From contig CM016929.1 in NCBI GenBank assembly GCA_006247105.1, forward strand, positions 1,070,338 to 1,134,337: a stretch of 64,000 nucleotides of DNA. The letters are read 5' to 3'. This document shows, one piece after another, positions 44,805-64,000 of the stretch. Each line of letters starts with the position of its first letter. The stretch's first letter is position 1. The stretch comes from Giardia muris (Eukaryota; Fornicata; Diplomonadida; Hexamitidae). Made by a program: the position numbers and the translations under genes. A model generated the notes under the pieces. The model saw nothing but the letters and a program-made list of their open reading frames with translations. It searched no databases and was not told the DNA's origin.

Positions 44805-46541
44805 ATGGGGGTGAAGAACGCGAGAGCCCTCTCGTGTACGGAAGGAGGTGCGTCAGGCAACTGCAAGACGGGGAGCTGCCTCGACCTCGGGACGCTGGGG
44901 AAGGTCTGCAAGGAGTGCAGTGACACGAACCAGGCCTCGATCGACGGGACGTGCAAGGCCCCAACAGCAGGCACGGACTGTACGGAGGCCGCAACCACTG
45001 GTGTCTGTACGGCATGCACAGGGACCTACTTCCTCTTCTACGGGGGGTGCTACAACCAGGCCAGTGGAGGCGAGGGCGCTGCTCTCTGCTCGGCGGCATC
45101 GAACGGGAAGTGCTCAAAGAGGGCCGAGGATGCGACAGGCATCTTCGTGAAGGGGAGCAAGGATGCTCCAACCGGCCTCTACACCTGTGATGATAAGACG
45201 AACGGGGTTCCCAACTGCGTGGCCTGTGACTCCCCCGCCACCAACAAGCCCAAGTGCAATGCGTGCAGGACGGGCTTCCTCCCGGATCAGGACAAGTCAG
45301 AATGCATCCAGTCCTCCCTCCAGCACTGCCTCCTGGTGACCGATGCTGACACCTGTCACACCTGCGAGGATGGGTACTACGTCTCCAACAAGGTCTGCGT
45401 CCCCTGCTCCTCGGGCTGCAAGACGTGCGACTCCAGCGGCTGCTCGGAGTGCCTCGAAGGATACTACTCCACTGGCACTCCTATCACCTGCACGAAGTGT
45501 TCTGTCGAGAACTGCAGGACATGCACAGCCGATGGATGTACCGCCTGCCTCGACGGATATGCGAAGACAGGAACGGGGACCAATACAAAGTGCATCCCGG
45601 TCGGAGGAGCGGACGTCAAGGACCCCCACTGCTCGACCGCCTCGGCTCTCGCTCTGAACGGGACCTTTGCGATCTGCAAGGAGTGCCAAGCAGGCTTCGT
45701 CCCCGTGGACGGCGTCTGCCAGTCGAGCACCACTGCCCCCGCCAGCAACGTCTGCACCTCCAATGGCAACAAGTGCGCCTCCTGCAAGAACGGCTTCATG
45801 CTCTACGAGGGCGGGTGCTACTCCTCCTCCAGGGCTGCCTCCCTCGGGATCTGCACCTCGTCCTTCCTCGTCGGAGACCAGCGGGCCTGCTCCAAGTGTA
45901 AGGCCGGGACCGTCCCGATCGATGGGGCGTGTGTCGAGGTCGGGTCGGCTCTCTCGAGGGCGAACATCGAAGATGTCTGCAAGAAGAGTGACGACAGCCC
46001 CGTCGACGCCTCCTCGACGTCCTGCGACAAGTGCGGGACGAATGGAGGAACAAACTACTTCCTCCTCAACGGGGGCTGCTACCCCGCAGGAACAAGCAAT
46101 GCGGGCTCCCTTGGGAACAAGATCTGCTCAACGGCCGCCAATGGGGCCTGCATCCAGACGGCCCAGGACAGCCCCTTCCTCCTCGAGGGGACCCAGCTTG
46201 TCTCCTGCTCCTCAAAGATGTCAGGATGCGTGGCGTGCAGCGATGCCTCGACCTGCTCGAAGTGCGGGGTCGGGTATGTGGAGACGCCCTCCAGCAACGC
46301 CTGCACTCCCTGCTCCGTCGAGAACTGCGCCTCGTGCTCCGATGCCGCCACCTGCACGACCTGCCTCGACGGGTCCGCCCCCGCCGCCACCGACCCGAAG
46401 TGCAAGGCCCTCGAGGCTTCCGGCTCCAGCTCCTCGGGGCTCTCGGGGGGTGCCATTGCGGGGATCGTCATCGCCGTCCTTCTGGTCCTGGGAGGCCTCG
46501 GGGGCTTCCTCGGTTGGTGGTTCGGATGCAGGGGGAAGTGA
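44805..46541 (+). CDS. VSP unit 1 (type I), no signal peptide
   Basis: 578 residues from an ATG inside a 5' end found in no other unit (MGVKNARALSCTEG). The ectodomain is built of CXXC pairs and GGCY motifs (FYGGCY, LNGGCY and the variant EGGCYSS). A Ser-rich spacer leads into a Gly/Val/Leu-rich membrane helix and the cytosolic tail GCRGK. VSPs coat the trophozoite and are exchanged in antigenic variation. The N-terminus lacks a hydrophobic signal sequence, which a surface protein needs, so as it stands this copy probably cannot reach the surface. The stop overlaps an AGTGAA signal, which overlaps the next unit's ATG. Confidence 0.85.
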   Translation: MGVKNARALSCTEGGASGNCKTGSCLDLGTLGKVCKECSDTNQASIDGTCKAPTAGTDCTEAATTGVCTACTGTYFLFYGGCYNQASGGEGAALCSAASNGKCSKRAEDATGIFVKGSKDAPTGLYTCDDKTNGVPNCVACDSPATNKPKCNACRTGFLPDQDKSECIQSSLQHCLLVTDADTCHTCEDGYYVSNKVCVPCSSGCKTCDSSGCSECLEGYYSTGTPITCTKCSVENCRTCTADGCTACLDGYAKTGTGTNTKCIPVGGADVKDPHCSTASALALNGTFAICKECQAGFVPVDGVCQSSTTAPASNVCTSNGNKCASCKNGFMLYEGGCYSSSRAASLGICTSSFLVGDQRACSKCKAGTVPIDGACVEVGSALSRANIEDVCKKSDDSPVDASSTSCDKCGTNGGTNYFLLNGGCYPAGTSNAGSLGNKICSTAANGACIQTAQDSPFLLEGTQLVSCSSKMSGCVACSDASTCSKCGVGYVETPSSNACTPCSVENCASCSDAATCTTCLDGSAPAATDPKCKALEASGSSSSGLSGGAIAGIVIAVLLVLGGLGGFLGWWFGCRGK

Positions 46542-46548
46542 GTGAATG
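46541..46548 (+). promoter_or_regulatory. Overlapping stop / AGTGAA / ATG junction between VSP units
   Basis: The stop TGA (46539-46541), AGTGAA (46541-46546) and ATG (46546-46548) overlap by one base each. The same arrangement recurs with AGTGAA starting at 48448, 50358, 51871, 53778, 55513, 57404, 58917, 60652 and 62550. This leaves no room for a promoter between units. Confidence 0.75.
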
Positions 46549-46552
46549 GTGA

Positions 46553-48448
46553 AGGGGAGGGAAGAACGCGAGAGTCCTCTCGTGTACGGAAGGGACGGCA
46601 TCAGGCAACTGCAAGGCGGGGAGCTGCCTCGACCTCGGGACGCTGGGGAAGGTATGCAAGGAGTGCGCGACCACGACTCGAGCTGCTGAGTTCCCAATCG
46701 ACGGGGAGTGCACCTCGACCAGTGGGAACGATTGTGTCAATGCGAACAACGGGACGTGCAGCTCGTGCGGGAATGCAGCCAACAACTTCCTCTTCTACGG
46801 GGGCTGCTACAGCACTCAGACAGCTGGAAAGGGGCAGGCTCTCTGCAAGACGGCATCGAACGGGAAGTGCTCAGAGAGGGCTGATACTGCGACGGGCATC
46901 TTCGTGAAGGGGAGCGACTCCAACCCCTCAGGCCTCTACACCTGCGACGACGAGACGAACGGGGTTCCCAACTGCAAGACCTGCACCTCCCCCGCCGCCG
47001 ACAAGCCGACCTGCACGGAGTGCGCCTCCGGGTTCGGGCCTGTCGTGGAGAGCCTCGATGCACCAACGATCACCTCCTGCGTCAGCTGCTCATCGAACGA
47101 GAACTGCAAGAGCTGCATGCAGATCGGGACCAGCTTCGTGTGTCTCGAGTGCAAGGATGCCACTCACGTCCCCGTCAACGGGAAGTGCGTCCTCAAGGAC
47201 AGTGCCTCCTCCTGCACCCCTGCCTCCAGCGCCGGGAAGTGCACGGCCTGCAAGGAGGGGAGCCTCTTCTTCCACGACGGCTGCTTCAGCCCCGAGAGCC
47301 TCAAGAGCCTCGGGATCTGCCTCGAGTCCTTCTCCGTCCCGGGCTGGTCCGAGGTCCTCTGCGGTAAGTGCGGGAAGGGGCTCGCCCCCGTCGACGGGAG
47401 GTGTCTGAAGGTGGAAGGGGGGAAGGCCGATTCGACCAGCTCATGCACGACGAGCCAAAATGGAACTCAGGTCGGGGTCTGCGACTCCTGTGGGTCCTCG
47501 AGCACCTACTTCCTCTTCAACGGGGGGTGCTATGCCCAGTCAAAGGAGCCCGGGAACAAGCTGTGCACGGCAATGACGACTCGGACGGCAGACGGGACCT
47601 GCTCGACCCCGACCTCCATCGCCTTCCTCAAGGACACCAAGCTCTACCTCTGCGGGGACACGACGAACGGGAAGGCGAACTGCAACACCTGCACCTACTC
47701 CACGTCCCTCTCCTGCACGTCCTGCCTCAACGGATGCATGCTCTCCAACTCCTCCTGCCTCTCCTCCTTCGATGCGGACAAGACGGGCCTCTGTGCCAAC
47801 AGCAACCAGCTTCTCGTCGGGGAGGCCCTGGTGTGCAAGGAGTGCAAGAAGGGAAGTGTTCCGATCGACGGGACGTGCCTCGAGGTCAGCTCGACCATCT
47901 CGAGGACGGCCACCAACGACGTCTGCAAGAAGGCCGACGGGACTCCTGTCGACGGGACCGCCACGAGGTGCGAGAACTGCTCGACGACCTACTTCCTCTT
48001 CGAGGGGGGCTGCTATCCCGTGACTCCGAACTCCGTCGGGAGCAAGCTGTGTCAAACGGCCTCCAATGGTCAGTGCACTACTGCTGCCAGTGGCTCCCCC
48101 TTCCCCCTCTCCAGTGGCGTCTTCACCCTCTGTCCGGCCGGTTGTGGGGCATGCTCCTCCTCGACTGTCTGCACGTCCTGCGGTCTCGGGTACTACAACA
48201 CGACCCCCGTCACCTCCTCCTCTGACTGCACGGCCTGCCCCAGTGGCTGCACGACGTGCTCCGCCTCGGCCTGCATCACGTGCTGGGACGGGAGTGCCCC
48301 GACCGACGGGAAGTGCAGTGCCGTCCCCTCCTCCAGCTCCTCGGGGCTCTCGGGGGGTGCCATTGCGGGAATCGTCATTGCCGTCCTGCTGGTCCTGGGA
48401 GGCCTCGGGGGCTTCCTCGGTTGGTGGTTCGGATGCAGGGGGAAGTGA
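46553..48448 (+). CDS. VSP unit 2 (type II), open frame without in-frame ATG
   Basis: The VSP frame is open for 631 codons from just after a TGA at 46550-46552 to the CRGK tail. It has no ATG near its start; the first GTG is at 46904, and the first in-frame ATG codes for a Met within the ectodomain (CMQIG). The junction ATG at 46546 is in another frame because of one additional A compared with units 6, 7 and 9. The coding part is otherwise intact, with CXXC and GGCY motifs, membrane helix and tail. It is probably a silent cassette that could serve as a donor in recombination. No signal peptide. Confidence 0.75.
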   Translation, partial: RGGKNARVLSCTEGTASGNCKAGSCLDLGTLGKVCKECATTTRAAEFPIDGECTSTSGNDCVNANNGTCSSCGNAANNFLFYGGCYSTQTAGKGQALCKTASNGKCSERADTATGIFVKGSDSNPSGLYTCDDETNGVPNCKTCTSPAADKPTCTECASGFGPVVESLDAPTITSCVSCSSNENCKSCMQIGTSFVCLECKDATHVPVNGKCVLKDSASSCTPASSAGKCTACKEGSLFFHDGCFSPESLKSLGICLESFSVPGWSEVLCGKCGKGLAPVDGRCLKVEGGKADSTSSCTTSQNGTQVGVCDSCGSSSTYFLFNGGCYAQSKEPGNKLCTAMTTRTADGTCSTPTSIAFLKDTKLYLCGDTTNGKANCNTCTYSTSLSCTSCLNGCMLSNSSCLSSFDADKTGLCANSNQLLVGEALVCKECKKGSVPIDGTCLEVSSTISRTATNDVCKKADGTPVDGTATRCENCSTTYFLFEGGCYPVTPNSVGSKLCQTASNGQCTTAASGSPFPLSSGVFTLCPAGCGACSSSTVCTSCGLGYYNTTPVTSSSDCTACPSGCTTCSASACITCWDGSAPTDGKCSAVPSSSSSGLSGGAIAGIVIAVLLVLGGLGGFLGWWFGCRGK

Positions 48449-48459
48449 GTGAATGGTGA

Positions 48460-50358
48460 AGGGGAGGGAAGAACGCGAGAGTCCTCTCGTGTACGGAAGG
48501 GACGGCATCAGGCAACTGCAAGGCGGGGAGCTGCCTCGACCTCGGGACGCTGGGGAAGGTATGCAAGGAGTGCGCGACCACGACTCGAGCTGCTGAGTTC
48601 CCAATCGACGGGGAGTGCACCTCGACCAGTGGGAACGATTGTGTCAATGCGAACAACGGGACGTGCAGCTCGTGCGGGAATGCAGCCAACAACTTCCTCT
48701 TCTACGGGGGCTGCTACAGCACTCAGACAGCTGGAAAGGGGCAGGCTCTCTGCAAGACGGCATCGAACGGGAAGTGCTCAGAGAGGGCTGATACTGCGAC
48801 GGGCATCTTCGTGAAGGGGAGCGACTCCAACCCCTCAGGCCTCTACACCTGCGACGACGAGACGAACGGGGTTCCCAACTGCAAGACCTGCACCTCCCCC
48901 GCCGCCGACAAGCCGACCTGCACGGAGTGCGCCTCCGGGTTCGGGCCTGTCGTGGAGAGCCTCGATGCACCAACGATCACCTCCTGCGTCAGCTGCTCAT
49001 CGAACGAGAACTGCAAGAGCTGCATGCAGATCGGGACCAGCTTCGTGTGTCTCGAGTGCAAGGATGCCACTCACGTCCCCGTCAACGGGAAGTGCGTCCT
49101 CAAGGACAGTGCCTCCTCCTGCACCCCTGCCTCCAATGCCGGGAAGTGCACGGCCTGCAAGGAGGGGAGCCTCTTCTTCCACGACGGCTGCTTCAGCCCC
49201 GAGAGCCTCAAGAGCCTCGGGATCTGCCTCGAGTCCTTCTCCGTCCCGGGCTGGTCCGAGGTCCTCTGCGGTAAGTGCGGGAAGGGGCTCGCCCCCGTCG
49301 ACGGGAGGTGTCTGAAGGTGGAAGGGGGGAAGGCCGATTCGACCAGCTCATGCACGACGAGCCAAAATGGAACTCAGGTCGGGGTCTGCGACTCCTGTGG
49401 GTCCTCGAACACCTACTTCCTCTTCAACGGGGGGTGCTATGCCCAGTCAAAGGAGCCCGGGAACAAGCTGTGCACGGCAATGACGACTCGGACGGCAGAC
49501 GGGACCTGCTCGACCCCGACCTCCATCGCCTTCCTCAAGGACACCAAGCTCTACCTCTGCGGGGACGCGACGAACGGGAAGGCGAACTGCAACACCTGCA
49601 CCTACTCCACGTCTCTCTCCTGCACGTCCTGCCTCAACGGATGCATGCTCTCCAACTCCTCCTGCCTCTCCTCCTTCGATGCGGACAAGACGGGCCTCTG
49701 TGCCAACAGCAACCAGCTTCTCGTCGGGGAGGCCCTGGTGTGCAAGGAGTGCAAGAAGGGAAGTGTTCCGATCGACGGGACGTGCCTCGAGGTCAGCTCG
49801 ACCATCTCGAGGACGACCACCAACGACGTCTGCATGAAGGCCGACGGGAAGACTCCTGTCGACGGGACCGCCACGAGGTGCGAGAACTGCTCGACGACCT
49901 ACTTCCTCTTCGAGGGGGGCTGCTATCCCGTGACTCCGAACTCCGTCGGGAGCAAGCTGTGTCAAACGGCCTCCAATGGTCAGTGCACTACTGCTGCCAA
50001 TGGCTCCCCCTTCCCCCTCTCCAGTGGCGTCTTCACCCTCTGTCCGGCCGGGTGTGGGGCATGCTCCTCCTCGACTGTCTGCACGTCCTGCGGTCTCGGG
50101 TACTACAACACGACCCCCGTCACCTCCTCCTCTGACTGCACGGCCTGCCCCAGTGGCTGCACGACGTGCTCCGCCTCGGCCTGCATCACGTGCTGGGACG
50201 GGAGTGCCCCGACCGACGGGAAGTGCAGTGCCGTCCCCTCCTCCAGCTCCTCGGGGCTCTCGGGGGGTGCCATTGCGGGAATCGTCATTGCCGTCCTGCT
50301 GGTGCTGGGAGGCCTCGGGGGCTTCCTCGGTTGGTGGTTCGGATGCAGGGGGAAGTGA
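48460..50358 (+). CDS. VSP unit 3 (type II), open frame without in-frame ATG
   Basis: 632 open codons, nearly identical to unit 2. Visible differences include PASNAGKC for PASSAGKC, GSSNTYF for GSSSTYF, GDATNG for GDTTNG, and a one-codon insertion giving CMKADGKTP. The junction ATG (48453) is again out of frame by the same additional A, and the frame is closed upstream by a TGA at 48457. The tandem copy of unit 2 lies at a period of 1907 bases, which suggests recent duplication. No signal peptide. Confidence 0.75.
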   Translation, partial: RGGKNARVLSCTEGTASGNCKAGSCLDLGTLGKVCKECATTTRAAEFPIDGECTSTSGNDCVNANNGTCSSCGNAANNFLFYGGCYSTQTAGKGQALCKTASNGKCSERADTATGIFVKGSDSNPSGLYTCDDETNGVPNCKTCTSPAADKPTCTECASGFGPVVESLDAPTITSCVSCSSNENCKSCMQIGTSFVCLECKDATHVPVNGKCVLKDSASSCTPASNAGKCTACKEGSLFFHDGCFSPESLKSLGICLESFSVPGWSEVLCGKCGKGLAPVDGRCLKVEGGKADSTSSCTTSQNGTQVGVCDSCGSSNTYFLFNGGCYAQSKEPGNKLCTAMTTRTADGTCSTPTSIAFLKDTKLYLCGDATNGKANCNTCTYSTSLSCTSCLNGCMLSNSSCLSSFDADKTGLCANSNQLLVGEALVCKECKKGSVPIDGTCLEVSSTISRTTTNDVCMKADGKTPVDGTATRCENCSTTYFLFEGGCYPVTPNSVGSKLCQTASNGQCTTAANGSPFPLSSGVFTLCPAGCGACSSSTVCTSCGLGYYNTTPVTSSSDCTACPSGCTTCSASACITCWDGSAPTDGKCSAVPSSSSSGLSGGAIAGIVIAVLLVLGGLGGFLGWWFGCRGK

Positions 50359-50383
50359 GTGAATGGTGAAGGGGGGAGGATGA

Positions 50384-51871
50384 GACGGGGGTGGTTCGAC
50401 CTTCACCATCCCGGGGGTTGAGGGAGAGTTCTGCAAGAAGTGCAGTGACACGAACCAGGCCCCGATCGATGGGGCTTGTGCAGCGAATCCGACTACCACT
50501 GTCACGGGTGCTACTTGTGCTGATGGTGCCTGCACAGGATGTGGAACGGGGAACTACTTCCTGTTCAACGGGGGCTGTTATGACCAGACCAAGGCGCCTG
50601 GGAACAAGCTGTGCTCCGCCCTCCAGGATACAAAGAACGGAACCTGCAAGACGGCTCCAACTACCGATGCCATCACCTTCGTCAAGGACAGCAACCTCTA
50701 CCTCTGTAGCGATGCGACGAACGGGGAACCGGGCTGCAGCACCTGCACCTACGACTCGACTAAAACACCCGCCTTCAACTGCACCTCGTGCCTCGAGGGC
50801 TTCTACCCCAACACCACCACCAGTCCCGTCAACTGCACGGCCTGCACCGTCCAGAACTGCAAGACGTGCTCCTCCTCCGCCTGCTCCGAGTGCGCTTCCG
50901 GGTTCGGGCCCGTCTACGACTCATCCCTCGTCATCACGAACTGCACCTCCTGCCCCGCAGACTGCACCGAGTGCGCCGACCAGGGCTTCTCGACCATCTG
51001 CGAGAAGTGCGGAATAGATAAGGTCCCCATCGACGGGAACTGCTCCACGAACTCGAACGTCTGCACGACTCCATCACCCCCAGACGGGACCTGCTCGTCC
51101 TGCAAGAACGGGTTCCTCTTCTACCAGGGCGGGTGTCTCTCCCCCCAGAAGGCGGCGGACCTCAAGGTCTGTGCCCTGGGAAGTCAGCTCCTCGTCGGGA
51201 ACACGACCGTCTGCACCGAGTGCAAGGGGGGTTTCGTCCCGATCGACGGGGAGTGTCTTCCGATCAAGCAGATCAACACGGGGACGACGAGGGCAGGTCA
51301 GGACATCTGCCTCGACGAGAAGGGGAACAAGGTCTCGAACACCGCCACGAAGTGCGGGGCCTGCATCAATACGACAGTCAACACCAACAACTACTTCCTC
51401 TTCAACGGGGGCTGCTACCCCATCCCGGCCGCGGGGTCTTCCTCCTCTTCCTCCGTCGGGAGCCTCCTCTGCTCATCGGCCTCCAACGGGAAGTGCACCG
51501 CCGCCCCGACCAGCGGGGGCCCCTTCCTCGTGGACGCGAACGGGACCTTCACCCCCTGTCCGGCCGGCTGTGGGGTCTGCACCTCCTCGAACGGAGCCAC
51601 CACCTGCACGTCCTGCGGCCTGGGGTACTTCGGAACCGCCCCCAACTGCACGGCCTGCCCTTCAGGATGCACGGTCTGCACGAAGGACGCCTGCACGACC
51701 TGTTGGAATGGAAGCGGCCCCGACGCCAGTGGGACCTGCCCCTCTCCCCCCTCCTCCAGTTCTTCGGGGCTCTCGGGGGGTGCCATTGCGGGGATCGTCA
51801 TTGCCGTCCTGCTGGTGCTGGGGGGCCTCGGGGGCTTCCTCGGTTGGTGGTTCGGATGCAGGGGGAAGTGA
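50384..51871 (+). CDS. VSP unit 4 (type III), open frame without in-frame ATG
   Basis: 495 open codons beginning GGGSTFTIPGVEGEFCKKCSD after a TGA at 50381; the first GTG comes only at 51530, near the C-terminal third. Type III differs from I and II in most of its ectodomain but keeps CXXC pairs, GGCY (FNGGCY twice), the variant QGGCLS, and the shared membrane helix and CRGK tail. Two ATGs in the leader (50363, 50380) are out of frame. The 5' leader is unlike that of the other types. No signal peptide, so probably silent. Confidence 0.7.
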   Translation, partial: DGGGSTFTIPGVEGEFCKKCSDTNQAPIDGACAANPTTTVTGATCADGACTGCGTGNYFLFNGGCYDQTKAPGNKLCSALQDTKNGTCKTAPTTDAITFVKDSNLYLCSDATNGEPGCSTCTYDSTKTPAFNCTSCLEGFYPNTTTSPVNCTACTVQNCKTCSSSACSECASGFGPVYDSSLVITNCTSCPADCTECADQGFSTICEKCGIDKVPIDGNCSTNSNVCTTPSPPDGTCSSCKNGFLFYQGGCLSPQKAADLKVCALGSQLLVGNTTVCTECKGGFVPIDGECLPIKQINTGTTRAGQDICLDEKGNKVSNTATKCGACINTTVNTNNYFLFNGGCYPIPAAGSSSSSSVGSLLCSSASNGKCTAAPTSGGPFLVDANGTFTPCPAGCGVCTSSNGATTCTSCGLGYFGTAPNCTACPSGCTVCTKDACTTCWNGSGPDASGTCPSPPSSSSSGLSGGAIAGIVIAVLLVLGGLGGFLGWWFGCRGK

Positions 51872-51882
51872 GTGAATGGTGA

Positions 51883-53778
51883 AGGGGAGGGAAGAACGCG
51901 AGAGTCCTCACGTGTACGGAAGGGACGGCATCAGGCAACTGCAAGGCGGGGAGCTGCCTCGACCTCGGGACGCTGGGGAAGGTATGCAAGGAGTGCGCGA
52001 CCACGACTCGAGCTGCTGAGTTCCCAATCGACGGGGAGTGCACCTCGACCAGTGGGAACGATTGTGTCAATGCGAACAACGGGACGTGCAGCTCGTGCGG
52101 GAATGCAGCCAACAACTTCCTCTTCTACGGGGGCTGCTACAGCACTCAGACAGCTGGAAAGGGGCAGGCTCTCTGCAAGACGGCATCGAACGGGAAGTGC
52201 TCAAAGAGGGCTGATACTGCGACGGGCATCTTCGTGAAGGGGAGCGACTCCAACCCCTCAGGCCTCTACACCTGCGACGACGAGACGAACGGGGTTCCCA
52301 ACTGCAAGACCTGCACCTCCCCCGCCGCCGACAAGCCGACCTGCACGGAGTGCGCCTCCGGGTTCGGGCCTGTCGTGGAGAGCCTCGATGCACCGACGAT
52401 CACCTCCTGTGTCAGCTGCTCATCGAACGAGAACTGCAAGAGCTGCATGCAGATCGGGACCAGCTTCGTGTGTCTCGAGTGCAATGGTACCACTCACGTC
52501 CCCGTCAACGGGAAGTGCGTCCTCAAGGACAGTGCCTCCTCCTGCACTCCTGCCTCCAACTCCGGAAAGTGCACGGCCTGCAAGGAGGGGAGCCTCTTCT
52601 TCCACGACGGCTGCTTCAGCCCCGAGAGCCTCAAGAGCCTCGGGATCTGCCTCGAGTCCTTCTCCGTTCCGGGCTGGTCCGAGGTCCTCTGCGGTAAGTG
52701 CGGGAAGGGGCTCGCCCCCGTCGACGGGAGGTGTCTGAAGGTGGAAGGGGGGAAGGCCGATTCGACCAGCTCATGCACGACGAGCCAAAATGGAACTCAG
52801 GTCGGGGTCTGCGACTCCTGTGGGTCCTCGAACACCTACTTCCTCTTCAACGGGGGGTGCTATGCCCAGTCAAAGGGGGTCGGGAACAAGCTGTGCACGG
52901 CAATGACGACTCGGACGGCAGACGGGACCTGCTCGACCTCGACTTCCATCGCCTTCCTCAAGGACACCAAGCTCTACCTCTGCGGGGATGCGACGAACGG
53001 GAAGGCGAACTGCAACACCTGCACCTACTCCACGTCTCTCTCCTGCACGTCCTGCCTCAACGGATGCATGCTCTCCAACTCCTCCTGCCTCTCCTCCTTC
53101 GATGCGGACAAGACGGGCCTCTGTGCCAGGAGCAACCAGCTTCTCGTCGGGGAGGCCCTGGTGTGCAAGGAGTGCAAGAAGGGAAGCGTTCCGATCGACG
53201 GGACGTGCCTCGAGGTCAGCTCGACCATCTCGAGGACGGCCACCAACGACGTCTGCAAGAAGGCCGACGGGACTCCTGTCGACGGGACCGCCACGAGGTG
53301 CGAGAACTGCTCGACGACCTACTTCCTCTTCGAGGGGGGCTGCTATCCCGTGACTCCGAACTCCGTCGGGAGCAAGCTGTGCTCATCGGCCTCCAATGGT
53401 CAGTGCACTACTGCTGCCAATGGCTCCCCCTTCCCCCTCTCCAGTGGCGTCTTCACCCTCTGTCCGGCCGGGTGTGGGGCATGCTCCTCCTCGACTGTCT
53501 GCACGTCCTGCGGTCTCGGGTACTACAACACGACCCCCGTCACCTCCTCCTCTGACTGCAAGGCCTGCCCCAGTGGCTGCACGACGTGCTCCGCCTCGGC
53601 CTGCATCACGTGCTGGGACGGGAGTGCCCCGACCGACGGGAAGTGCAGTGCCGTCCCCTCCTCCAGCTCCTCGGGGCTCTCTGGGGGTGCCATTGCGGGG
53701 ATCGTCATCGCCGTCCTGCTGGTGCTGGGAGGTCTCGGGGGCTTCCTCGGTTGGTGGTTCGGATGCAGGGGGAAGTGA
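51883..53778 (+). CDS. VSP unit 5 (type II), open frame without in-frame ATG
   Basis: 631 open codons after a TGA at 51880. It is a type II copy with its own variants, such as CNGTTHVPVNG, PASNSGKC, SKGVGNK and CARSNQ, most of which are shared with unit 7 rather than units 2 and 3. The junction ATG (51876) is out of frame through the same additional A. The ectodomain, membrane helix and tail are intact. No signal peptide. Confidence 0.75.
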   Translation, partial: RGGKNARVLTCTEGTASGNCKAGSCLDLGTLGKVCKECATTTRAAEFPIDGECTSTSGNDCVNANNGTCSSCGNAANNFLFYGGCYSTQTAGKGQALCKTASNGKCSKRADTATGIFVKGSDSNPSGLYTCDDETNGVPNCKTCTSPAADKPTCTECASGFGPVVESLDAPTITSCVSCSSNENCKSCMQIGTSFVCLECNGTTHVPVNGKCVLKDSASSCTPASNSGKCTACKEGSLFFHDGCFSPESLKSLGICLESFSVPGWSEVLCGKCGKGLAPVDGRCLKVEGGKADSTSSCTTSQNGTQVGVCDSCGSSNTYFLFNGGCYAQSKGVGNKLCTAMTTRTADGTCSTSTSIAFLKDTKLYLCGDATNGKANCNTCTYSTSLSCTSCLNGCMLSNSSCLSSFDADKTGLCARSNQLLVGEALVCKECKKGSVPIDGTCLEVSSTISRTATNDVCKKADGTPVDGTATRCENCSTTYFLFEGGCYPVTPNSVGSKLCSSASNGQCTTAANGSPFPLSSGVFTLCPAGCGACSSSTVCTSCGLGYYNTTPVTSSSDCKACPSGCTTCSASACITCWDGSAPTDGKCSAVPSSSSSGLSGGAIAGIVIAVLLVLGGLGGFLGWWFGCRGK

Positions 53779-53782
53779 GTGA

Positions 53783-55513: not shown

Positions 55514-55517
55514 GTGA

Positions 55518-57404
55518 ATGGTGAGGGGAGGGAAGAACGCGAGAGCCCTCTCGTGTACGGAAGGGACGGCATCAGGCAACTGCAAGGCGGGGAGCTGCCT
55601 CGACCTCGGGACGCTGGGGAAGGTCTGCAAGGAGTGCGCGACCACGACCGAGGCCTCGATCGACGGGACGTGCAGCTCGACCGTCGGGAGCAACACGTGT
55701 TCCAATGGTGTCTGCACGGCATGCGACACGTCCGGGACGAAGTTTCTCTTCTACGGGGGGTGCTATGACCAGGGGTCTGTCGACAAGGGCGCTGCTCTCT
55801 GCTCGGCGGCATCGAACGGGAAGTGCTCAAAGAGGGCTGATACTGCGACGGGCATCTTCGTGAAGGGGAGCGACTCCAACCCCTCAGGCCTCTACACCTG
55901 TGATGATAAGACGAACGGGGTTCCCAACTGCAAGACCTGCACCTCCCCCGCCGCCGACAAGCCGACCTGCACGGAGTGCGCCTCCGGGTTCGGGCCTGTC
56001 GTGGAGAGCCTCGATGCACCGACGATCACCTCCTGTGTCAGCTGCTCATCGAACGAGAACTGCAAGAGCTGCATGCAGATCGGGACCAGCTTCGTGTGTC
56101 TCGAGTGCAATGGTACCACTCACGTCCCCGTCAACGGGAAGTGCGTCCCCAAGGACAGTGCCTCCTCCTGCACTCCTGCCTCCAACTCCGGAAAGTGCAC
56201 GGCCTGCAAGGAGGGGAGCCTCTTCTTCCACGACGGCTGCTTCAGCCCCGAGAGCCTCAAGAGCCTCGGGATCTGCCTCGAGTCCTTCTCCGTCCCGGGC
56301 TGGTCCGAGGTCCTCTGCGGTAAGTGCGGGAAGGGGCTCGCCCCCGTCGACGGGAGGTGTCTGAAGGTGGAAGGGGGGAAGGCCGATTCGACCAGCTCAT
56401 GCACGACGAGCCAAAATGGAACTCAGGTCGGGGTCTGCGACTCCTGTGGGTCCTCGAACACCTACTTCCTCTTCAACGGGGGGTGCTATGCCCAGTCAAA
56501 GGGGGTCGGGAACAAGCTGTGCACGGCAATGACGACTCGGACGGCAGACGGGACCTGCTCGACCCCGACCTCCATCGCCTTCCTCAAGGACACCAAGCTC
56601 TACCTCTGCGGGGATGCGACGAACGGGAAGGCGAACTGCAACACCTGCACCTACTCCACGTCCCTCTCCTGCACGTCCTGCCTCAACGGATGCATGCTCT
56701 CCAACTCCTCCTGCCTCTCCTCCTTCGATGCGGACAAGACGGGCCTCTGTGCCAGGAGCAACCAGCTTCTCGTCGGGGAGGCCCTGGTGTGCAAGGAGTG
56801 CAAGAAGGGAAGCGTTCCGATCGACGGGACGTGCCTCGAGGTCAGCTCGACCATCTCGAGGACGACCACCAACGACGTCTGCAAGAAGGCCGACGGGACT
56901 CCTGTCGACGGGACCGCCACGAGGTGCGAGAACTGCTCGACGAACTACTTCCTCTTCGAGGGGGGCTGCTACCCCGTGACTCCGAACTCCGTCGGGAGCA
57001 AGCTGTGTCAAACGGCCTCCAATGGTCAGTGCACTACTGCTGCCAGTGGCTCCCCCTTCCCCCTCTCCAATGGCGTCTTCACCCTCTGTCCGGCCGGGTG
57101 TGGGGCATGCTCCTCCTCGACTGTCTGCACGTCCTGCGGTCTCGGGTACTACAACACGACCCCCGTCACCTCCTCCTCTGACTGCACGGCCTGCCCCAGT
57201 GGCTGCACGACGTGCTCCGCCTCGGCCTGCATCACGTGCTGGGACGGGAGTGCCCCGACCGACGGGAAGTGCAGTGCCGTCCCCTCCTCCAGCTCCTCGG
57301 GGCTCTCTGGGGGTGCCATTGCGGGGATCGTCATCGCCGTCCTGCTGGTGCTGGGAGGCCTCGGGGGCTTCCTCGGTTGGTGGTTCGGATGCAGGGGGAA
57401 GTGA
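55518..57404 (+). CDS. VSP unit 7 (type I/II mosaic) with in-frame ATG
   Basis: 628 residues. The first ~60 codons match type I (MVRGGKNARALSC... EASIDGTCSS), including the in-frame ATG. There follows a stretch seen in no other unit (CDTSGTKFLFYGGCYDQGSVDKG), and then, from about residue 85 on, a body of type II closest to unit 5. It thus looks like a type II cassette joined to a type I leader. The ectodomain, helix and tail are complete. No signal peptide. Confidence 0.85.
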   Translation: MVRGGKNARALSCTEGTASGNCKAGSCLDLGTLGKVCKECATTTEASIDGTCSSTVGSNTCSNGVCTACDTSGTKFLFYGGCYDQGSVDKGAALCSAASNGKCSKRADTATGIFVKGSDSNPSGLYTCDDKTNGVPNCKTCTSPAADKPTCTECASGFGPVVESLDAPTITSCVSCSSNENCKSCMQIGTSFVCLECNGTTHVPVNGKCVPKDSASSCTPASNSGKCTACKEGSLFFHDGCFSPESLKSLGICLESFSVPGWSEVLCGKCGKGLAPVDGRCLKVEGGKADSTSSCTTSQNGTQVGVCDSCGSSNTYFLFNGGCYAQSKGVGNKLCTAMTTRTADGTCSTPTSIAFLKDTKLYLCGDATNGKANCNTCTYSTSLSCTSCLNGCMLSNSSCLSSFDADKTGLCARSNQLLVGEALVCKECKKGSVPIDGTCLEVSSTISRTTTNDVCKKADGTPVDGTATRCENCSTNYFLFEGGCYPVTPNSVGSKLCQTASNGQCTTAASGSPFPLSNGVFTLCPAGCGACSSSTVCTSCGLGYYNTTPVTSSSDCTACPSGCTTCSASACITCWDGSAPTDGKCSAVPSSSSSGLSGGAIAGIVIAVLLVLGGLGGFLGWWFGCRGK

Positions 57405-57429
57405 GTGAATGGTGAAGGGGGGAGGATGA

Positions 57430-58917
57430 GACGGGGGTGGTTCGACCTTCACCATCCCGGGGGTTGAGGGAGAGTTCTGCAAGAAGTGCAGTGACACGAA
57501 CCAGGCCCCGATCGATGGGGCTTGTGCAGCGAATCCGACTACCACTGTCACGGGTGCTACTTGTGCTGATGGTGCCTGCACAGGATGTGGAACGGGGAAC
57601 TACTTCCTGTTCAACGGGGGCTGTTATGACCAGACACAGGGGGTTGGGAACAAGCTGTGCTCCGCCCTCCAGGATACAAAGAACGGAACCTGCAAGACGG
57701 CTCCAACTACCGATGCCATCACCTTCGTCAAGGACAGCAACCTCTACCTCTGTAGCGATGCGACGAACGGGGAACCGGGCTGCAGCACCTGCACCTACGA
57801 CTCGACTAAAACACCCGCCTTCAACTGCACCTCGTGCCTCGAGGGCTTCTACCCCAACACCACCACCAGTCCCGTCAACTGCACGGCCTGCACCGTCCAG
57901 AACTGCAAGACGTGCTCCTCCTCCGCCTGCTCCGAGTGCGCTTCCGGGTTCGGGCCCGTCTACGACTCATCCCTCGTCATCACGAACTGCACCTCCTGCC
58001 CCGCAGACTGCACCGAGTGCGCCGACCAGGGCTTCTCGACCATCTGCGAGAAGTGCGGAATAGATAAGGTCCCCATCGACGGGAACTGCTCCACGAACTC
58101 GAACGTCTGCACGACTCCATCACCCCCAGACGGGACCTGCTCGTCCTGCAAGAACGGGTTCCTCTTCTACCAGGGCGGGTGTCTCTCCCCCCAGAAGGCG
58201 GCGGACCTCAAGGTCTGTGCCCTGGGAAGCCAGCTCCTCGTCGGGAACACGACCGTCTGTACCGAGTGCAAGGGGGGCTTCGTCCCGATCGACGGGGAGT
58301 GTCTTCCGATCAAGCAGATCAACACGGGGACGACGAGGGCAGGTCAGGACATCTGCCTCGACGAGAAGGGGAACAAGGTCTCGAACACCGCCACGAAGTG
58401 CGGGGCCTGCATCAATACGACAGTCAACACCAACAACTACTTCCTCTTCAACGGGGGCTGCTACCCCATCCCGGCCGCGGGGTCTTCCTCCTCTTCCTCC
58501 GTCGGGAGCCTCCTCTGCTCATCGGCCTCCAACGGGAAGTGCACCGCCGCCCCGACCAGCGGGGGCCCCTTCCTCGTGGACGCGAACGGGACCTTCACCC
58601 CCTGTCCGGCCGGCTGTGGGGTCTGCACCTCCTCGAACGGAGCCACCACCTGCACGTCCTGCGGCCTGGGGTACTTCGGAACCGCCCCCAACTGCACCGC
58701 ATGTCCGACCGGCTGCACGGTCTGCACGAAGGACGCCTGCACGACCTGTTGGAATGGAAACAGCCCCGACACCAGTGGGACCTGCCCCTCTCCCCCCTCC
58801 TCCAGTTCTTCGGGGCTCTCGGGGGGTGCCATTGCGGGGATCGTCATTGCCGTCCTGCTGGTCCTGGGAGGTCTCGGGGGCTTCCTCGGTTGGTGGTTCG
58901 GATGCAGGGGGAAGTGA
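57430..58917 (+). CDS. VSP unit 8 (type III), open frame without in-frame ATG
   Basis: 495 open codons, almost identical to unit 4. Visible differences include TQGVGNK for TKAPGNK and, near the end, ACPTGCTVC and NGNSPDTSG. The leader is the same, closed by a TGA at 57427, with ATGs at 57409 and 57426 that are out of frame. The shared membrane helix and CRGK tail are present. No signal peptide. Confidence 0.7.
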   Translation, partial: DGGGSTFTIPGVEGEFCKKCSDTNQAPIDGACAANPTTTVTGATCADGACTGCGTGNYFLFNGGCYDQTQGVGNKLCSALQDTKNGTCKTAPTTDAITFVKDSNLYLCSDATNGEPGCSTCTYDSTKTPAFNCTSCLEGFYPNTTTSPVNCTACTVQNCKTCSSSACSECASGFGPVYDSSLVITNCTSCPADCTECADQGFSTICEKCGIDKVPIDGNCSTNSNVCTTPSPPDGTCSSCKNGFLFYQGGCLSPQKAADLKVCALGSQLLVGNTTVCTECKGGFVPIDGECLPIKQINTGTTRAGQDICLDEKGNKVSNTATKCGACINTTVNTNNYFLFNGGCYPIPAAGSSSSSSVGSLLCSSASNGKCTAAPTSGGPFLVDANGTFTPCPAGCGVCTSSNGATTCTSCGLGYFGTAPNCTACPTGCTVCTKDACTTCWNGNSPDTSGTCPSPPSSSSSGLSGGAIAGIVIAVLLVLGGLGGFLGWWFGCRGK

Positions 58918-58921
58918 GTGA

Positions 58922-60652
58922 ATGGTGAGGGGAGGGAAGAACGCGAGAGCCCTCTCGTGTACGGAAGGGACGGCATCAGGCAACTGCAAGGCGGGGAGCT
59001 GCCTCGACCTCGGGACACTGGGGAAGGTCTGCAAGGAGTGCGCGACCGCGAACGAGGCCTCGATCGACGGGACGTGCAGCTCGGCTATTGAGAGCAACAC
59101 GTGTTCCAATGGTGTCTGCACGGCATGCGCAGGGACCTACTTCCTCTTCTACGGGGGGTGCTACAACCAGGCCAGTGGAGGCGAGGGCGCTGCTCTCTGC
59201 AAGACGGCCACCAAAGGGCAGTGCTCAGAGAGGGCCAGCGATGCGATGGGCATCTTCGTGAAGGGGAGCAAGGATGCTCCAACCGGCCTCTACACCTGTG
59301 ATGATAAGACGAACGGGGTTCCCAACTGCGTGGCCTGTGACTCCCCCGCCACCAACAAGCCCAAGTGCAATGCGTGCAGGACGGGCTTCCTCCCGGATCA
59401 GGACAAGTCAGAATGCATCCAGTCCTCCCTCCAGCACTGCCTCCTGGTGACCGATGCTGACACCTGTCACACCTGCGAGGATGGGTACTACGTCTCCAAC
59501 AAGGTCTGCGTCCCCTGCTCCTCGGGCTGCAAGACGTGCGACTCCAGCGGCTGCTCGGAGTGCCTCGAAGGATACTACTCCACTGGCACTCCTATCACCT
59601 GCACGAAGTGTTCTGTCGAGAACTGCAGGACATGCACAGCCGATGGATGTACCGCCTGCCTCGACGGATATGCGAAGACAGGAACGGGGACCAATACAAA
59701 GTGCATCCCGGTCGGAGGAGCGGACGTCAAGGACCCCCACTGCTCGACCGCCTCGGCTCTCGCTCTGAACGGGACCTTTGCGATCTGCAAGGAGTGCCAA
59801 GCAGGCTTCGTCCCCGTGGACGGCGTCTGCCAGTCGAGCACCACTGCCCCCGCCAGCAACATCTGCACCTCCAATGGCAACAAGTGCGCCTCCTGCAAGA
59901 ACGGCTTCATGCTCTACGAGGGCGGGTGCTACTCCTCCTCCAGAGCTGCCTCCCTCGGGATCTGCGCCTCGTCCTTCCTCGTCGGAGACCAGCGGGCCTG
60001 CTCCAAGTGTAAGGCCGGGACCGTCCCGATCGATGGGGCGTGTGTCGAGGTCGGGTCGGCTCTCTCGAGGGCGAACATCGAAGATGTCTGCAAGAAGAGT
60101 GACGACAGCCCCGTCGACGCCTCCTCGACGTCCTGCGACAAGTGCGGGACGAATGGAGGAACAAACTACTTCCTCCTCAACGGGGGCTGCTACCCCGCAG
60201 GAACAAGCAATGCGGGCTCCCTTGGGAACAAGATCTGCTCAACGGCCGCCAATGGGGCCTGCATCCAGACGGCCCAGGACAGCCCCTTCCTCCTCGAGGG
60301 GACCCAGCTTGTCTCCTGCTCCTCAAAGATGTCAGGATGCGTGGCGTGCAGCGATGCCTCGACCTGCTCGAAGTGCGGGGTCGGGTATGTGGAGACGCCC
60401 TCCAGCAACGCCTGCACTCCCTGCTCCGTCGAGAACTGCGCCTCGTGCTCCGATGCCGCCACCTGCACGACCTGCCTCGACGGGTCCGCCCCCGCCGCCA
60501 CCGACCCGAAGTGCAAGGCCCTCGAGGCTTCCGGCTCCAGCTCCTCGGGGCTCTCGGGGGGTGCCATTGCGGGGATCGTCATCGCCGTCCTGCTGGTGCT
60601 GGGAGGTCTCGGGGGCTTCCTCGGTTGGTGGTTCGGATGCAGGGGGAAGTGA
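58922..60652 (+). CDS. VSP unit 9 (type I) with in-frame junction ATG
   Basis: 576 residues, nearly identical to unit 6 at 5139 bases distance. Its middle matches unit 1 at some of the sites where unit 6 differs (VACDSPA, CKTCDSS), so the three copies look reshuffled. The ATG at 58922 is in frame. CXXC and GGCY motifs, membrane helix and CRGK tail are intact; there is no signal peptide. Confidence 0.85.
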   Translation: MVRGGKNARALSCTEGTASGNCKAGSCLDLGTLGKVCKECATANEASIDGTCSSAIESNTCSNGVCTACAGTYFLFYGGCYNQASGGEGAALCKTATKGQCSERASDAMGIFVKGSKDAPTGLYTCDDKTNGVPNCVACDSPATNKPKCNACRTGFLPDQDKSECIQSSLQHCLLVTDADTCHTCEDGYYVSNKVCVPCSSGCKTCDSSGCSECLEGYYSTGTPITCTKCSVENCRTCTADGCTACLDGYAKTGTGTNTKCIPVGGADVKDPHCSTASALALNGTFAICKECQAGFVPVDGVCQSSTTAPASNICTSNGNKCASCKNGFMLYEGGCYSSSRAASLGICASSFLVGDQRACSKCKAGTVPIDGACVEVGSALSRANIEDVCKKSDDSPVDASSTSCDKCGTNGGTNYFLLNGGCYPAGTSNAGSLGNKICSTAANGACIQTAQDSPFLLEGTQLVSCSSKMSGCVACSDASTCSKCGVGYVETPSSNACTPCSVENCASCSDAATCTTCLDGSAPAATDPKCKALEASGSSSSGLSGGAIAGIVIAVLLVLGGLGGFLGWWFGCRGK

Positions 60653-60663
60653 GTGAATGGTGA

Positions 60664-62550
60664 AGGGGAGGGAAGAACGCGAGGGCCCTCTCGTGCACGG
60701 AAGGGACGGCATCAGGCGACTGCAAGGCGGGGAGCTGCCTCGACCTCGGGACGCTGGGGAAGGTATGCAAGGAGTGCGCGACCACGACTCGAGCTGCTGA
60801 GTTCCCAATCGACGGGGAGTGCACCTCGACCAGTGGGAACGATTGTGTCAATGCGAACAACGGGACGTGCAGCTCGTGCGGGAATGCAGCCAACAACTTC
60901 CTCTTCTACGGGGGCTGCTACAGCACTCAGACAGCTGGAAAGGGGCAGGCTCTCTGCAAGACGGCATCGAACGGGAAGTGCTCAGAGAGGGCTGATACTG
61001 CGACGGGCATCTTCGTGAAGGGGAGCGACTCCAACCCCTCAGGCCTCTACACCTGTGATGATAAGACGAACGGGGTTCCCAACTGCAAGACCTGCACCTC
61101 CCCCGCCGCCGACAAGCCGACCTGCACGGAGTGCGCCTCCGGGTTCGGGCCTGTCGTGGAGAGCCTCGATGCACCGACGATCACCTCCTGCGTCAGCTGC
61201 TCATCGGACGAGAACTGCAAGAGCTGCATGAAGATCGGGACCAGCTTCGTGTGTCTCGAGTGCAAGGATGCCACTCACGTCCCCGTCAACGGGAAGTGCG
61301 TCCTCAAGGACAGTGCCTCCTCCTGCACCCCTGCCTCCAATGCCGGGAAGTGCACGGCCTGCAAGGAGGGGAGCCTCTTCTTCCACGACGGCTGCTTCAG
61401 CCCGAGAGCCTCAAGAGCCTCGGGATCTGCCTCGAGTCCTTCTCCGTCCCGGGCTGGTCCGAGGTCCTCTGCGGTAAGTGCGGGAAGGGGCTCGCCCCCG
61501 TCGACGGGAGGTGTCTGAAGGTGGAAGGGGGGAAGGCCGATTCGACCAGCTCATGCACGACGAGCCAAAATGGAACTCAGGTCGGGGTCTGCGACTCCTG
61601 TGGGTCCTCGAACACCTACTTCCTCTTCAACGGGGGTGCTATGCCCAGTCAAAGGAGCCCGGGAACAAGCTGTGCACGGCAATGACGACTCGGACGGCAG
61701 ACGGGACCTGCTCGACCCCGACCTCCATCGCCTTCCTCAAGGACACCAAGCTCTACCTCTGCGGGATGCGACGAACGGGAAGGCGAACTGCAACACCTGC
61801 ACCTACTCCACGTCCCTCTCCTGCACGTCCTGCCTCAACGGATGCATGCTCTCCAACTCCTCCTGCCTCTCCTCCTTCGATGCGGACAAGACGGGCCTCT
61901 GTGCCACAGCAACCAGCTTCTCGTCGGGGAGGCCCTGGTGTGCAAGGAGTGCAAGAAGGAAGTGTTCCGATCGACGGGACGTGCCTCGAGGTCAGCTCGA
62001 CCATCTCGAGGACGACCACCAACGACGTCTGCATGAAGGCCGACGGGAAGACTCCTGTCGACGGGACCGCCACGAGGTGCGAGAACTGCTCGACGACCTA
62101 CTTCCTCTTCGAGGGGGGCTGCTATCCCGTGACTCCGAACTCCGTCGGGAGCAAGCTGTGTCAAACGGCCTCCAATGGTCAGTGCACTACTGCTGCCAAT
62201 GGCTCCCCCTTCCCCTCTCCAGTGGCGTCTTCACCCTCTGTCCGGCCGGGTGTGGGCATGCTCCTCCTCGACTGTCTGCACGTCCTGCGGTCTCGGGTAC
62301 TACAACACGACCCCGTCACCTCCTCCTCTGACTGCAAGGCCTGCCCCAGTGGCTGCACGACGTGCTCCGCCTCGGCCTGCATCACGTGCTGGGACGGGAG
62401 TGCCCCGACCGACGGGAAGTGCAGTGCCGTCCCTCCTCCAGCTCCTCGGGCTCTCGGGGGTGCCATTGCGGGAATCGTCATTGCCGTCCTGCTGGTCCTG
62501 GGAGGCCTCGGGGCTTCCTCGGTTGGTGGTTCGGATGTAGGGGGAAGTGA
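60664..62550 (+). pseudogene. VSP unit 10 (type II), multiple single-base deletions
   Basis: A type II copy most like unit 3 (CMKADGKTP) with SSDENCKSCMKIG variants. The junction ATG (60657) is out of frame as in units 2, 3 and 5. The frame is intact until about 61400 and then breaks repeatedly through single-base losses, mostly in G or C runs. They fall near 61402, 61636, 61765, 61905, 61958, 62213, 62254, 62312, 62433, 62449, 62457 and 62512. The tail reads GCRGK-like sequence with one base change (gatgta). Because nearly every loss is a single base in a run, I read these as probable consensus errors over an otherwise ordinary silent unit. Confidence 0.6.
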
Positions 62551-62561
62551 GTGAATGGTGA

Positions 62562-64000
62562 AGGGGAGGGAAGAACGCGAGAGTCCTCTCGTGTACGGAA
62601 GGGACGGCATCAGGCAACTGCAAGGCGGGGAGCTGCCTCGACCTCGGGACGCTGGGGAAGGTATGCAAGGAGTGCGCGACCACGACTCGAGCTGCTGAGT
62701 TCCCAATCGACGGGGAGTGCACCTCGACCAGTGGGAACGATTGTGTCAATGCGAACAACGGGACGTGCAGCTCGTGCGGGAATGCAGCCAACAACTTCCT
62801 CTTCTACGGGGCTGCTACAGCACTCAGACAGCTGGAAAGGGCAGGCTCTCTGCAAGACGGCATCGAACGGGAAGTGCTCAGAGAGGGCTGATACTGCGAC
62901 GGGCATCTTCGTGAAGGGGAGCGACTCCAACCCTCAGCCTCTACACCTGCGACGACGAGACGAACGGGGTTCCCAACTGCAAGACCTGCACCTCCCCGCC
63001 GCCGACAAGCCGACCTGCACGGAGTGCGCCTCCGGGTTCGGGCCTGTCGTGGAGAGCCTCGATGCACCAACGATCACCTCCTGCGTCAGCTGCTCATCGG
63101 ACGAGAACTGCAAGAGCTGCATGAAGATCGGGACCAGCTTGTGTGTCTCGAGTGCAAGGATGCCACTCACGTCCCGTCAACGGGAAGTGCGTCCTCAAGG
63201 ACAGTGCCTCCTCCTGCACCCCTGCCTCCAATGCCGGGAAGTGCACGGCCTGCAAGGAGGGAGCCTCTCTTCCACGACGGCTGCTTCAGCCCGAGAGCCT
63301 CAAGAGCCTCGGGATCTGCCTCGATCCTTCTCCGTCCGGGCTGGTCCGAGGTCCTCTGCGGTAAGTGCGGGAAGGGGCTCGCCCCCGTCGACGGGAGTGT
63401 CTGAAGGTGGAAGGGGGGAAGGCCGATTCGACCAGCTCATGCACGACGAGCCAAAATGGAACTCAGGTCGGGGTCTGCGACTCCTGTGGGTCTCGAACAC
63501 CTACTTCCTCTTCAACGGGGGTGCTATGCCCAGTCAAAGGGGGTCGGGAACAAGCTGTGCACGGCAATGACGACTCGGACGGCAGACGGACCTGCTCGAC
63601 CCCGACCTCCATCGCCTTCCTCAAGGACACCAAGCTCTACCTCTGCGGGGACGCGACGAACGGGAAGGCGAACTGCAACACCTGCACCTACTCCACGTCT
63701 CTCTCCTGCACGTCCTGCCTCAACGGATGCATGCTCTCCAACTCTCCTGCTCTCCTCCTTCGATGCGGACAAGACGGGCCTCTGTGCCAACAGCAACCAG
63801 CTTCTCGTCGGGGAGGCCCTGGTGGCAAGGAGTGCAAGAAGGGAAGTGTTCCGATCGACGGGACGTGCCTCGAGTCAGCTCGACCATCTCGAGGACGACC
63901 ACCAACGACGTCTGCATGAAGGCCGACGGGAAGACTCCTGTCGACGGGACCGCCACGAGGTGCGAGAACTGCTCGACGACCTACTTCCTCTTCGAGGGGG
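62562..64000 (+). pseudogene. VSP unit 11 (type II), partial, many single-base deletions
   Basis: A type II copy cut by the right edge of the window. It resembles units 3 and 10 but loses one base roughly every 50-100 positions, both in homopolymers and elsewhere, so the frame is shattered. Losses are visible near 62810, 62838, 62934, 62938, 62996, 63140, 63173, 63262, 63291, 63325, 63337, 63397, 63492, 63588, 63742, 63750, 63824 and 63875. Only deletions are seen and their density exceeds that in unit 10. The junction ATG (62555) is in the out-of-frame configuration. It is most likely an ordinary unit with poor base-calling. Confidence 0.6.

What the first reader, a model, noticed from the sequence alone, without database searches (positions are those of the whole stretch)
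44805..64000. Spacer-free VSP array in which no unit has a signal peptide
All eleven units keep the CXXC ectodomain, membrane helix and CRGK tail, but the N-terminus of each begins directly in cysteine-rich sequence with no hydrophobic leader and no promoter space. This looks like a library of silent cassettes feeding an expression site by recombination. G. duodenalis VSPs, by contrast, typically have their own leaders.
Basis: partly seen in the sequence, partly recalled or inferred. Interest (0 to 1): 0.75.

Follow-up and report, generated by a model that had tools for sequence, protein, structure and literature searches.

The report
Silent leaderless surface-antigen gene array
This is a chromosome-end row of surface-antigen gene copies in the mouse parasite Giardia muris that lack the export leader and promoter; such rows were published in 2020, but the silent copies sampled here look about as well kept as working genes, which suggests a maintained spare-parts store more than a graveyard.

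Summary
The array is real and already published in kind. The window ends contig C5 of the Giardia muris assembly of Xu et al. 2020 (two VSP pair distances match to the base). That paper calls leaderless VSPs "ψVSPs", finds them in telomere-adjacent arrays, reports essentially no transcription and proposes a silent reservoir.

Corrections: units 1-9 are open, unit 10 is broken as assembled, unit 11 is cut by the contig end. All 29 gaps against a near-identical copy on C1 sit in the last 2.6 kb, on the window side: probably sequencing error. The contrast with G. duodenalis fails.

Added here: (1) 58 of 60 sampled units keep full frames, with dN/dS (0.52-0.65) like leader-bearing VSPs (0.54), against the published idea of relaxed pressure. 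(2) The first unit, like 13 other ψVSP heads read, carries a conserved 75-bp in-frame block in the leader's place (at least 40 places by search). (3) Three of 11 leader-bearing VSPs read are mosaics with silent units, but not with this array's bodies; types A and B showed no leader-bearing counterpart. Donation by this array is inferred, not shown.

The parts
44742..44816 (+). Head block: 75 bp conserved and in frame with the unit that follows, in the place of a leader at the 5' end of the first unit
   Evidence: 109-base query around it matches 40 places at 93-100% identity, a lower bound and including itself; 14 copies read, 13 complete and one cut by the fetched stretch, run in frame into a VSP N-terminus
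44805..46541 (+). Unit 1, body type A, open (its ATG lies inside the head block)
46542..48448 (+). Unit 2, type B, open, no ATG at start
48449..50358 (+). Unit 3, type B, open, no ATG at start
50359..51871 (+). Unit 4, type C, open, no ATG at start
51872..53778 (+). Unit 5, type B, open; similarity to contig C1 jumps to near-identity inside it (last of 28 substitutions at 52668)
53779..55513 (+). Unit 6, type A, open, ATG at start
55514..57404 (+). Unit 7, type B, open, ATG at start
57405..58917 (+). Unit 8, type C, open, no ATG at start
58918..60652 (+). Unit 9, type A, open, ATG at start
60653..62550 (+). Unit 10, type B by DNA, frame broken as assembled; CRGK tail present in the DNA
62551..64000 (+). 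Unit 11, type B by DNA, frame broken as assembled and cut by the contig end
51754..64000 (+). Stretch shared with the right-end array of contig C1 (2776255-2788533)
   Evidence: 99.5% over 12,280 columns; one substitution in 53500-61500, longest exact run 4,535 bp
43729..44735 (-). Opposed protein kinase with ankyrin remnant, truncated at the array side
   Evidence: Pkinase E 1.9e-53, Ank_2 E 2.5e-5 below its Pfam cut-off (query 43732-45099); the ORF's listed extension into unit 1 is antisense to it

Best explanation
A telomere-adjacent ψVSP array of Giardia muris. Each unit is a cassette that runs from near the mature N-terminus to the membrane anchor, stop codon and a putative poly(A) signal, without leader or promoter. 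Units are silent. They are copied between chromosome ends by ectopic recombination and, by inference, serve as templates for segmental gene conversion into the roughly two dozen dispersed leader-bearing VSP genes; indirect selection through that use keeps their frames. Shown here: anatomy, missing leader, near-identity of two chromosome-end arrays, frame conservation in a sample, mosaic leader-bearing genes elsewhere. From the paper: lack of transcription. Inferred: donation by this array's own units, and that its units begin at the signal-peptide end.
For: Units 1-9 lack a hydrophobic N-terminus. None of the 24 leader places lies in the array. The MLV leader query matches 29 further places only from residues 16-22 onward, i.e. 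past the hydrophobic part of the leader; the window's units are not among them, so for them this start point is by analogy through the shared head block and junction. 58 of 60 units between two sampled tails open within 130 nt of the unit start. dN/dS medians are 0.59, 0.62, 0.52 and 0.65 in four unit groups (the last from 4 pairs), against 0.54 in 36 pairs of leader-bearing genes. Private codon changes are synonymous-rich: 50 S, 38 N against 25.1 and 60.7 expected if neutral (P 2.7e-8). Leader-bearing genes L031, L034 and L035 are patchworks with silent units over their 3' parts, mostly 91-100% per 150-bp piece. The 12-kb stretch shared with C1 points to recombination between chromosome ends. 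Xu 2020 reports essentially no transcription of ψVSPs.
Against: This array's bodies are not found in leader-bearing genes. Outside the last 300 bp, window units match the 11 genes read at no more than 79% per 150-bp piece (units 2-10, and with unit 1 added wherever a piece had a 90% match). In the rows listed, type A (15 places at 94% or more) and type B (77 segments at 92% or more) do not fall in a leader-bearing frame; such frames match at 49% or less (A) and 40% or less (B). Type C was not searched genome-wide, and 3 of 14 distinct leader loci were not read. The frame and dN/dS signal could partly predate silencing or come in by conversion: keeping only isolated private changes leaves 13 S and 10 N against 7.0 and 15.6 (P 0.008). 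Constraint is uneven along type B: one ectodomain block has pN/pS 0.92. The C1 identity could be an assembly chimera.
Confidence: 0.7

Rival explanations
1. Graveyard: units are dead duplicates piling up at chromosome ends, homogenised by unequal exchange, with no role as donors.
For: No leader, no promoter, no transcription in the paper; no leader-bearing gene seen with bodies A or B. Adam et al. offer 'discarded vsp genes' as one of two readings for G. lamblia arrays.
Against: 58 of 60 sampled units are open, although a random substitution in them gives a stop with probability 0.03, so about 1.3 stops per unit are expected at 2.5% divergence per lineage (units are related, so this is indicative). 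N/S of private changes is about a third of neutral. 54 of 54 type-B segments at 92% or more identity on the five large contigs lie in frames of 597 codons or more (the two broken copies at the window's end fall below that cut).
Confidence: 0.15
2. Units are expressed after all: a leader exon is trans-spliced on, or a rare internal promoter is used.
For: The paper's Table 1 lists five trans introns for G. muris; units keep frames and a putative poly(A) signal; four units have an ATG at the start.
Against: No acceptor-like ACRCACAG, CACACAG or ACACAG from 60 nt before to 120 nt after the 11 points tested, one per unit start (motif recalled); the paper reports essentially no ψVSP transcription.
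Confidence: 0.04
3. Parts of the array are an assembly product: the contig end borrowed from C1, with an unpolished tail.
For: 53500-61500 has one substitution against C1. All 29 gap events lie from 61400 on, all on the window side, 23 of 29 in homopolymers. The assembly is HGAP/Quiver with 70 Illumina-based corrections in total.
Against: Units 1-5 differ from the C1 copy, and arrays at other ends have the same build. The artefact explains the broken tail and perhaps the identity, not the array.
Confidence: 0.1

Closest known systems
Giardia muris ψVSP linear arrays (Xu et al. 2020, PMC7641422)
   Same: Same assembly; GCRGK tail; no signal peptide; tandem; telomere-adjacent with tail to the end; silent-reservoir proposal
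   Different: The paper suggests relaxed pressure on ψVSPs; here sampled silent units look about as constrained as leader-bearing ones. Term searches of its main text (upstream, leader, conserved element, open reading frame, purifying, selection) showed no head block or constraint test; supplements were not read.
Giardia lamblia vsp linear arrays (Adam et al. 2010, PMC2996952)
   Same: Close-packed head-to-tail vsp genes, downstream members without the initiator element, reservoir-or-remains speculation
   Different: Not preferentially telomeric there (Xu discussion); the first gene often has upstream noncoding DNA and an initiator there, whereas this array's first unit has the head block
Pneumocystis MSG family I with UCS and CRJE (PMC5676039, passages only)
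   Same: Works alike: subtelomeric silent genes that lack promoter and signal peptide, oriented to the contig end, with a short conserved element at their start
   Different: One expression site there, many leader-bearing genes here; the G. muris block was not found at the 11 leader-bearing loci read
Trypanosoma brucei silent VSG archive (recalled; named as a parallel by Xu et al.)
   Same: Subtelomeric silent arrays as sources for recombination
   Different: Telomeric expression sites and 70-bp repeats (recalled) were not tested for here

Membership tests
G. muris ψVSP array (Xu 2020) | VSP homologue with CXXC motifs and C-terminal GCRGK | tested here: met
   Units 1-9; Pfam VSP on the three units tested; units 10 and 11 not assessable as protein
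G. muris ψVSP array (Xu 2020) | No predicted signal peptide | tested here: met
   Hydropathy proxy, not a signal-peptide predictor: 0.74-0.77 in units 1-9 against 3.06-3.2 in 11 leader-bearing genes
G. muris ψVSP array (Xu 2020) | More than three genes in a linear array | tested here: met
   Ten tails, nine spacings, plus one cut unit
G. muris ψVSP array (Xu 2020) | At or close to a main contig end, tail towards the end | tested here: met
   C5 has 1,134,337 bases and the window ends there; ten of ten tails on the + strand
G. muris ψVSP array (Xu 2020) | Not transcribed | not testable with these tools
   Only the paper's statement
Pneumocystis-type MSG switching | Single expression site with promoter and leader | tested here: not met
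   24 leader places of two leader families
Pneumocystis-type MSG switching | Junction element shared by silent genes and the expression site | tested here: not met
   Block found in 14 places of the sequence held, none at the 11 leader-bearing loci read; loci not read could differ
T. brucei-type VSG archive | 70-bp repeats upstream of silent genes and telomeric expression sites | not tested
   Recalled only

The most novel reading that the evidence does not exclude
The 'pseudogenes' are not pseudogenes: G. muris keeps a selected library of leaderless VSP cassettes with fixed borders. At the 5' side of array heads and solitary copies is a conserved 75-bp in-frame block in place of the signal peptide; at the 3' side are anchor, tail, stop and a putative poly(A) signal. 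Frames are held by use as donors, and body types A and B are a reserve with no leader-bearing copy in the sequenced population.
Probability: 0.3. Interest if true: 0.6.

Novelty: already known. Interest (0 to 1): 0.35.

Why it matters
Whether Giardia varies its coat only by switching genes on and off or also by copying from silent stores is, as far as I know, unsettled for the genus. Constraint on silent units, if it holds for the whole set, would argue that they are used, and mosaic leader-bearing genes point to exchange. The G. muris mouse infection is a natural system in which to observe this. The result also warns that broken frames at this contig end should not be read as decay.

Tried and rejected
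Rejected: 'expressed as they stand' (no leader, no acceptor-like motif at the 11 unit starts tested; no transcription in the paper). Rejected: this window as the internal chromosome-5 array of the paper; twelve equal-scoring copies with a 2017-bp period sit at C5 531-554 kb, while this array ends the contig. Weak test: gap lengths between units were multiples of three in 1084 of 2383 (type B, 21 of the 26 units), 655 of 1233 (g1) and 211 of 375 (C) gap events; hypervariable stretches split gaps, so I do not use it as evidence. Upstream A+T did not separate units from leader-bearing genes: two MLV-type genes have 65% A+T in the 40 bases before the ATG, nine MFV-type genes 30-38%, units 40-42%. 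Limits: the selection tests use 60 units from the window and seven other stretches of C1, C2 and C5, none from C3 or C4, and not all ψVSPs; the groups hold open units only, so their lack of nonsense changes is by selection and carries no weight. Tree lengths are inflated by recombination, so its expected stop counts are not used as proof. One search (26 type-B units) gave 55 S and 45 N over three groups, (25 type-B units) 50 S and 38 N; I quote.

Full report
Where it is. The window is bases 1,070,338-1,134,337 of contig C5, and C5 ends exactly there. The genome (9.74 Mb, 52 contigs held) is the Giardia muris assembly of Xu et al. 2020, PMC7641422: two tail-to-tail VSP pairs lie 1658 and 1656 bp apart (computed from the tail places), and Table 3 of that paper gives 1658 and 1656. 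The paper defines VSPs without signal peptide as ψVSPs. It places 183 of 239 in 17 linear arrays, finds arrays at nine of ten main contig ends with the tail towards the end, reports essentially no transcription, and compares the system with Pneumocystis and T. brucei silent reservoirs. So both the observation and its main interpretation are in print.

The observation. Ten CRGK+stop tails on the + strand, 1513-1910 bp apart, follow a first unit starting at 44805. Three body types alternate: A (units 1, 6, 9; 1735 bp), B (units 2, 3, 5, 7, by DNA also 10 and 11; 1891-1910 bp) and C (units 4, 8; 1513 bp). Units 1-9 are open. None of these nine has a hydrophobic start. Four begin with an in-frame ATG, five do not. 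The stop of one unit and the body of the next are separated by about 22-25 nt, and AGTRAAY occurs at 10 of 10 tails, overlapping or next to the stop. That AGTRAAY is the Giardia poly(A) signal is recalled; the paper says a putative signal overlaps the stop codon in most genes.

The broken end. Window 51754-64000 aligns to C1:2776255-2788533 at 99.5% over 12,280 columns. There are 28 substitutions between 51766 and 52668, then one between 53500 and 61500, with a longest exact run of 4,535 bp. From 61400 to the contig end there are 29 gap events, all on the window side, 23 of 29 in homopolymers, plus 12 substitutions after 61500. The paper used HGAP and Quiver with 70 Illumina-based corrections in total. 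I conclude that the frame breaks in units 10 and 11 are most likely sequencing error, and that C5 and C1 ends share a very recent copy, or that the contig end is chimeric; reads are needed to tell. Type-B segments found genome-wide at 92% identity or more number 77; they lie in frames of 597 codons or more in 54 of 54 cases on the five large contigs and 17 of 23 on small contigs. That cut drops the two broken window copies, and the search scored 150 of 547 candidates.

Cassette borders. The MLV leader query matched 38 places, nine from residue 1 and 29 only from residues 16-22 onward. So relatives without leader begin to match near the signal-peptide end. The window's units are not among the 38; for them the same start point is an analogy, drawn from the shared junction and head block. 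Upstream of unit 1 lies a 75-bp block. A 109-base query around it matched 40 places at 93-100%, itself included (58 candidates, 40 scored, so a lower bound). I hold sequence for 14 of them or of further copies: 13 complete copies all have the same length and are 96.6% identical on average, one is cut by the fetched stretch, and all 14 run in frame into a VSP N-terminus. Of 12 heads with a tail in the fetched sequence, 11 are open to the stop and one is not; the other two, L042 and L043, break off inside the VSP. What follows the remaining places was not read. Upstream, the block joins kinase/ankyrin-like sequence at a few distinct junctions. The block encodes a hydrophilic stretch and was not found at the 11 leader-bearing loci read. 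Most VSPs whose 3' flank I printed continue as GGTGAAGGGGAGACC when no VSP follows, while inside arrays the flank is fused shortly after GGTGAAGGGG or GGTGAGGGG to the next body, which looks like an ancestral fusion that spread.

Constraint. 58 of 60 units between two sampled tails are open nearly from their start; the exceptions are one on C2 and window unit 10. dN/dS medians are 0.59 (26 type-B units), 0.62 (11), 0.52 (8) and 0.65 (5 units, 4 usable pairs). Nine leader-bearing MFV-type genes give 0.54 over 36 pairs. As a control, the type-B alignment read in the two wrong frames gives pN/pS 0.92 and 1.69, against 0.60 in the true frame. Along type B the ratio is 0.55-0.92 in seven 80-codon ectodomain blocks and 0.23 in the block with the anchor. 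Private single-base codon changes in three groups sum to 50 S and 38 N, expected 25.1 and 60.7 (P 2.7e-8). Nonsense changes are 0 against 2.2 expected, but only open units were in the groups. Keeping only isolated changes leaves 13 S and 10 N against 7.0 and 15.6 (P 0.008). This does not fit the paper's suggestion of relaxed evolutionary pressure on silent copies. Caveats: related units, conversion tracts, and changes older than silencing.

Exchange with leader-bearing genes. The leader searches found 15 places with the MFV leader and nine with the MLV leader, forming 9 + 5 distinct loci or sets as I group them by position; I read 9 + 2. L031, L034 and L035 are patchworks: their first 200 bp or so have no close silent match, a short stretch near 201-450 matches one solitary ψVSP (as it does in eight of the nine MFV genes), a gap of weaker similarity follows, and the 3' part matches silent units mostly at 91-100% per 150-bp piece, with single pieces down to 81%, the best match changing along the gene. 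These partners are solitary ψVSPs and array units other than the window's A, B and C bodies, apart from tail pieces. Outside the last 300 bp the window units reach at most 79%. Type A occurs at 15 places at 94% or more, two of them next to a leader-bearing pair on C5; type B at 77 at 92% or more. In the rows listed neither falls inside a leader-bearing frame. So exchange is supported for the system, as the paper says, and not shown for this array. Sequence likeness alone does not give the direction of copying.

Verdict. Ordinary in kind and already described; the useful additions are the constraint on silent units, the head block, the artefact at the contig end, and the missing leader-bearing counterpart of bodies A and B. 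Literature seen: PMC7641422 (outline with abstract, section 9 in full, passages), PMC2996952 (abstract, passages), PMC5676039 (passages), and the search listings. That the head block and the constraint are not in print rests on those listings and on term searches in PMC7641422 only.

Noticed in passing
window 39376-42621: 1081-residue ORF left of the array without any Pfam match at E 0.001.
   Followed up: no
window 43729-44735: Kinase-ankyrin gene opposed to the array and truncated at the array border; the head block joins kinase/ankyrin-like pieces at a few distinct junctions elsewhere too.
   Followed up: partly
G000 small contigs C33, C34, C35, C46, C6, C7, C10: Several of their ψVSP segments score the same as segments at the ends of C2-C5 (e.g. 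C46 and C2 left, C34/C35 with C3 right and C4 left), so they may be second assemblies of the same chromosome ends and inflate ψVSP counts.
   Followed up: no
G000 C5:531440-553716: Twelve copies with a 2017-bp period and equal scores: fits the internal, recently duplicated array of the paper.
   Followed up: no
L033 (C5:732900-735400): A leader-bearing VSP directly followed by a leaderless unit; its junction keeps the head-type sequence before the body.
   Followed up: partly
upstream of MFV-type genes (L017, L018, L019, L022, L031-L035): The 40 bases before the ATG are nearly the same in nine dispersed leader-bearing genes, so upstream sequence and leader seem to travel as one 5' cap.
   Followed up: no
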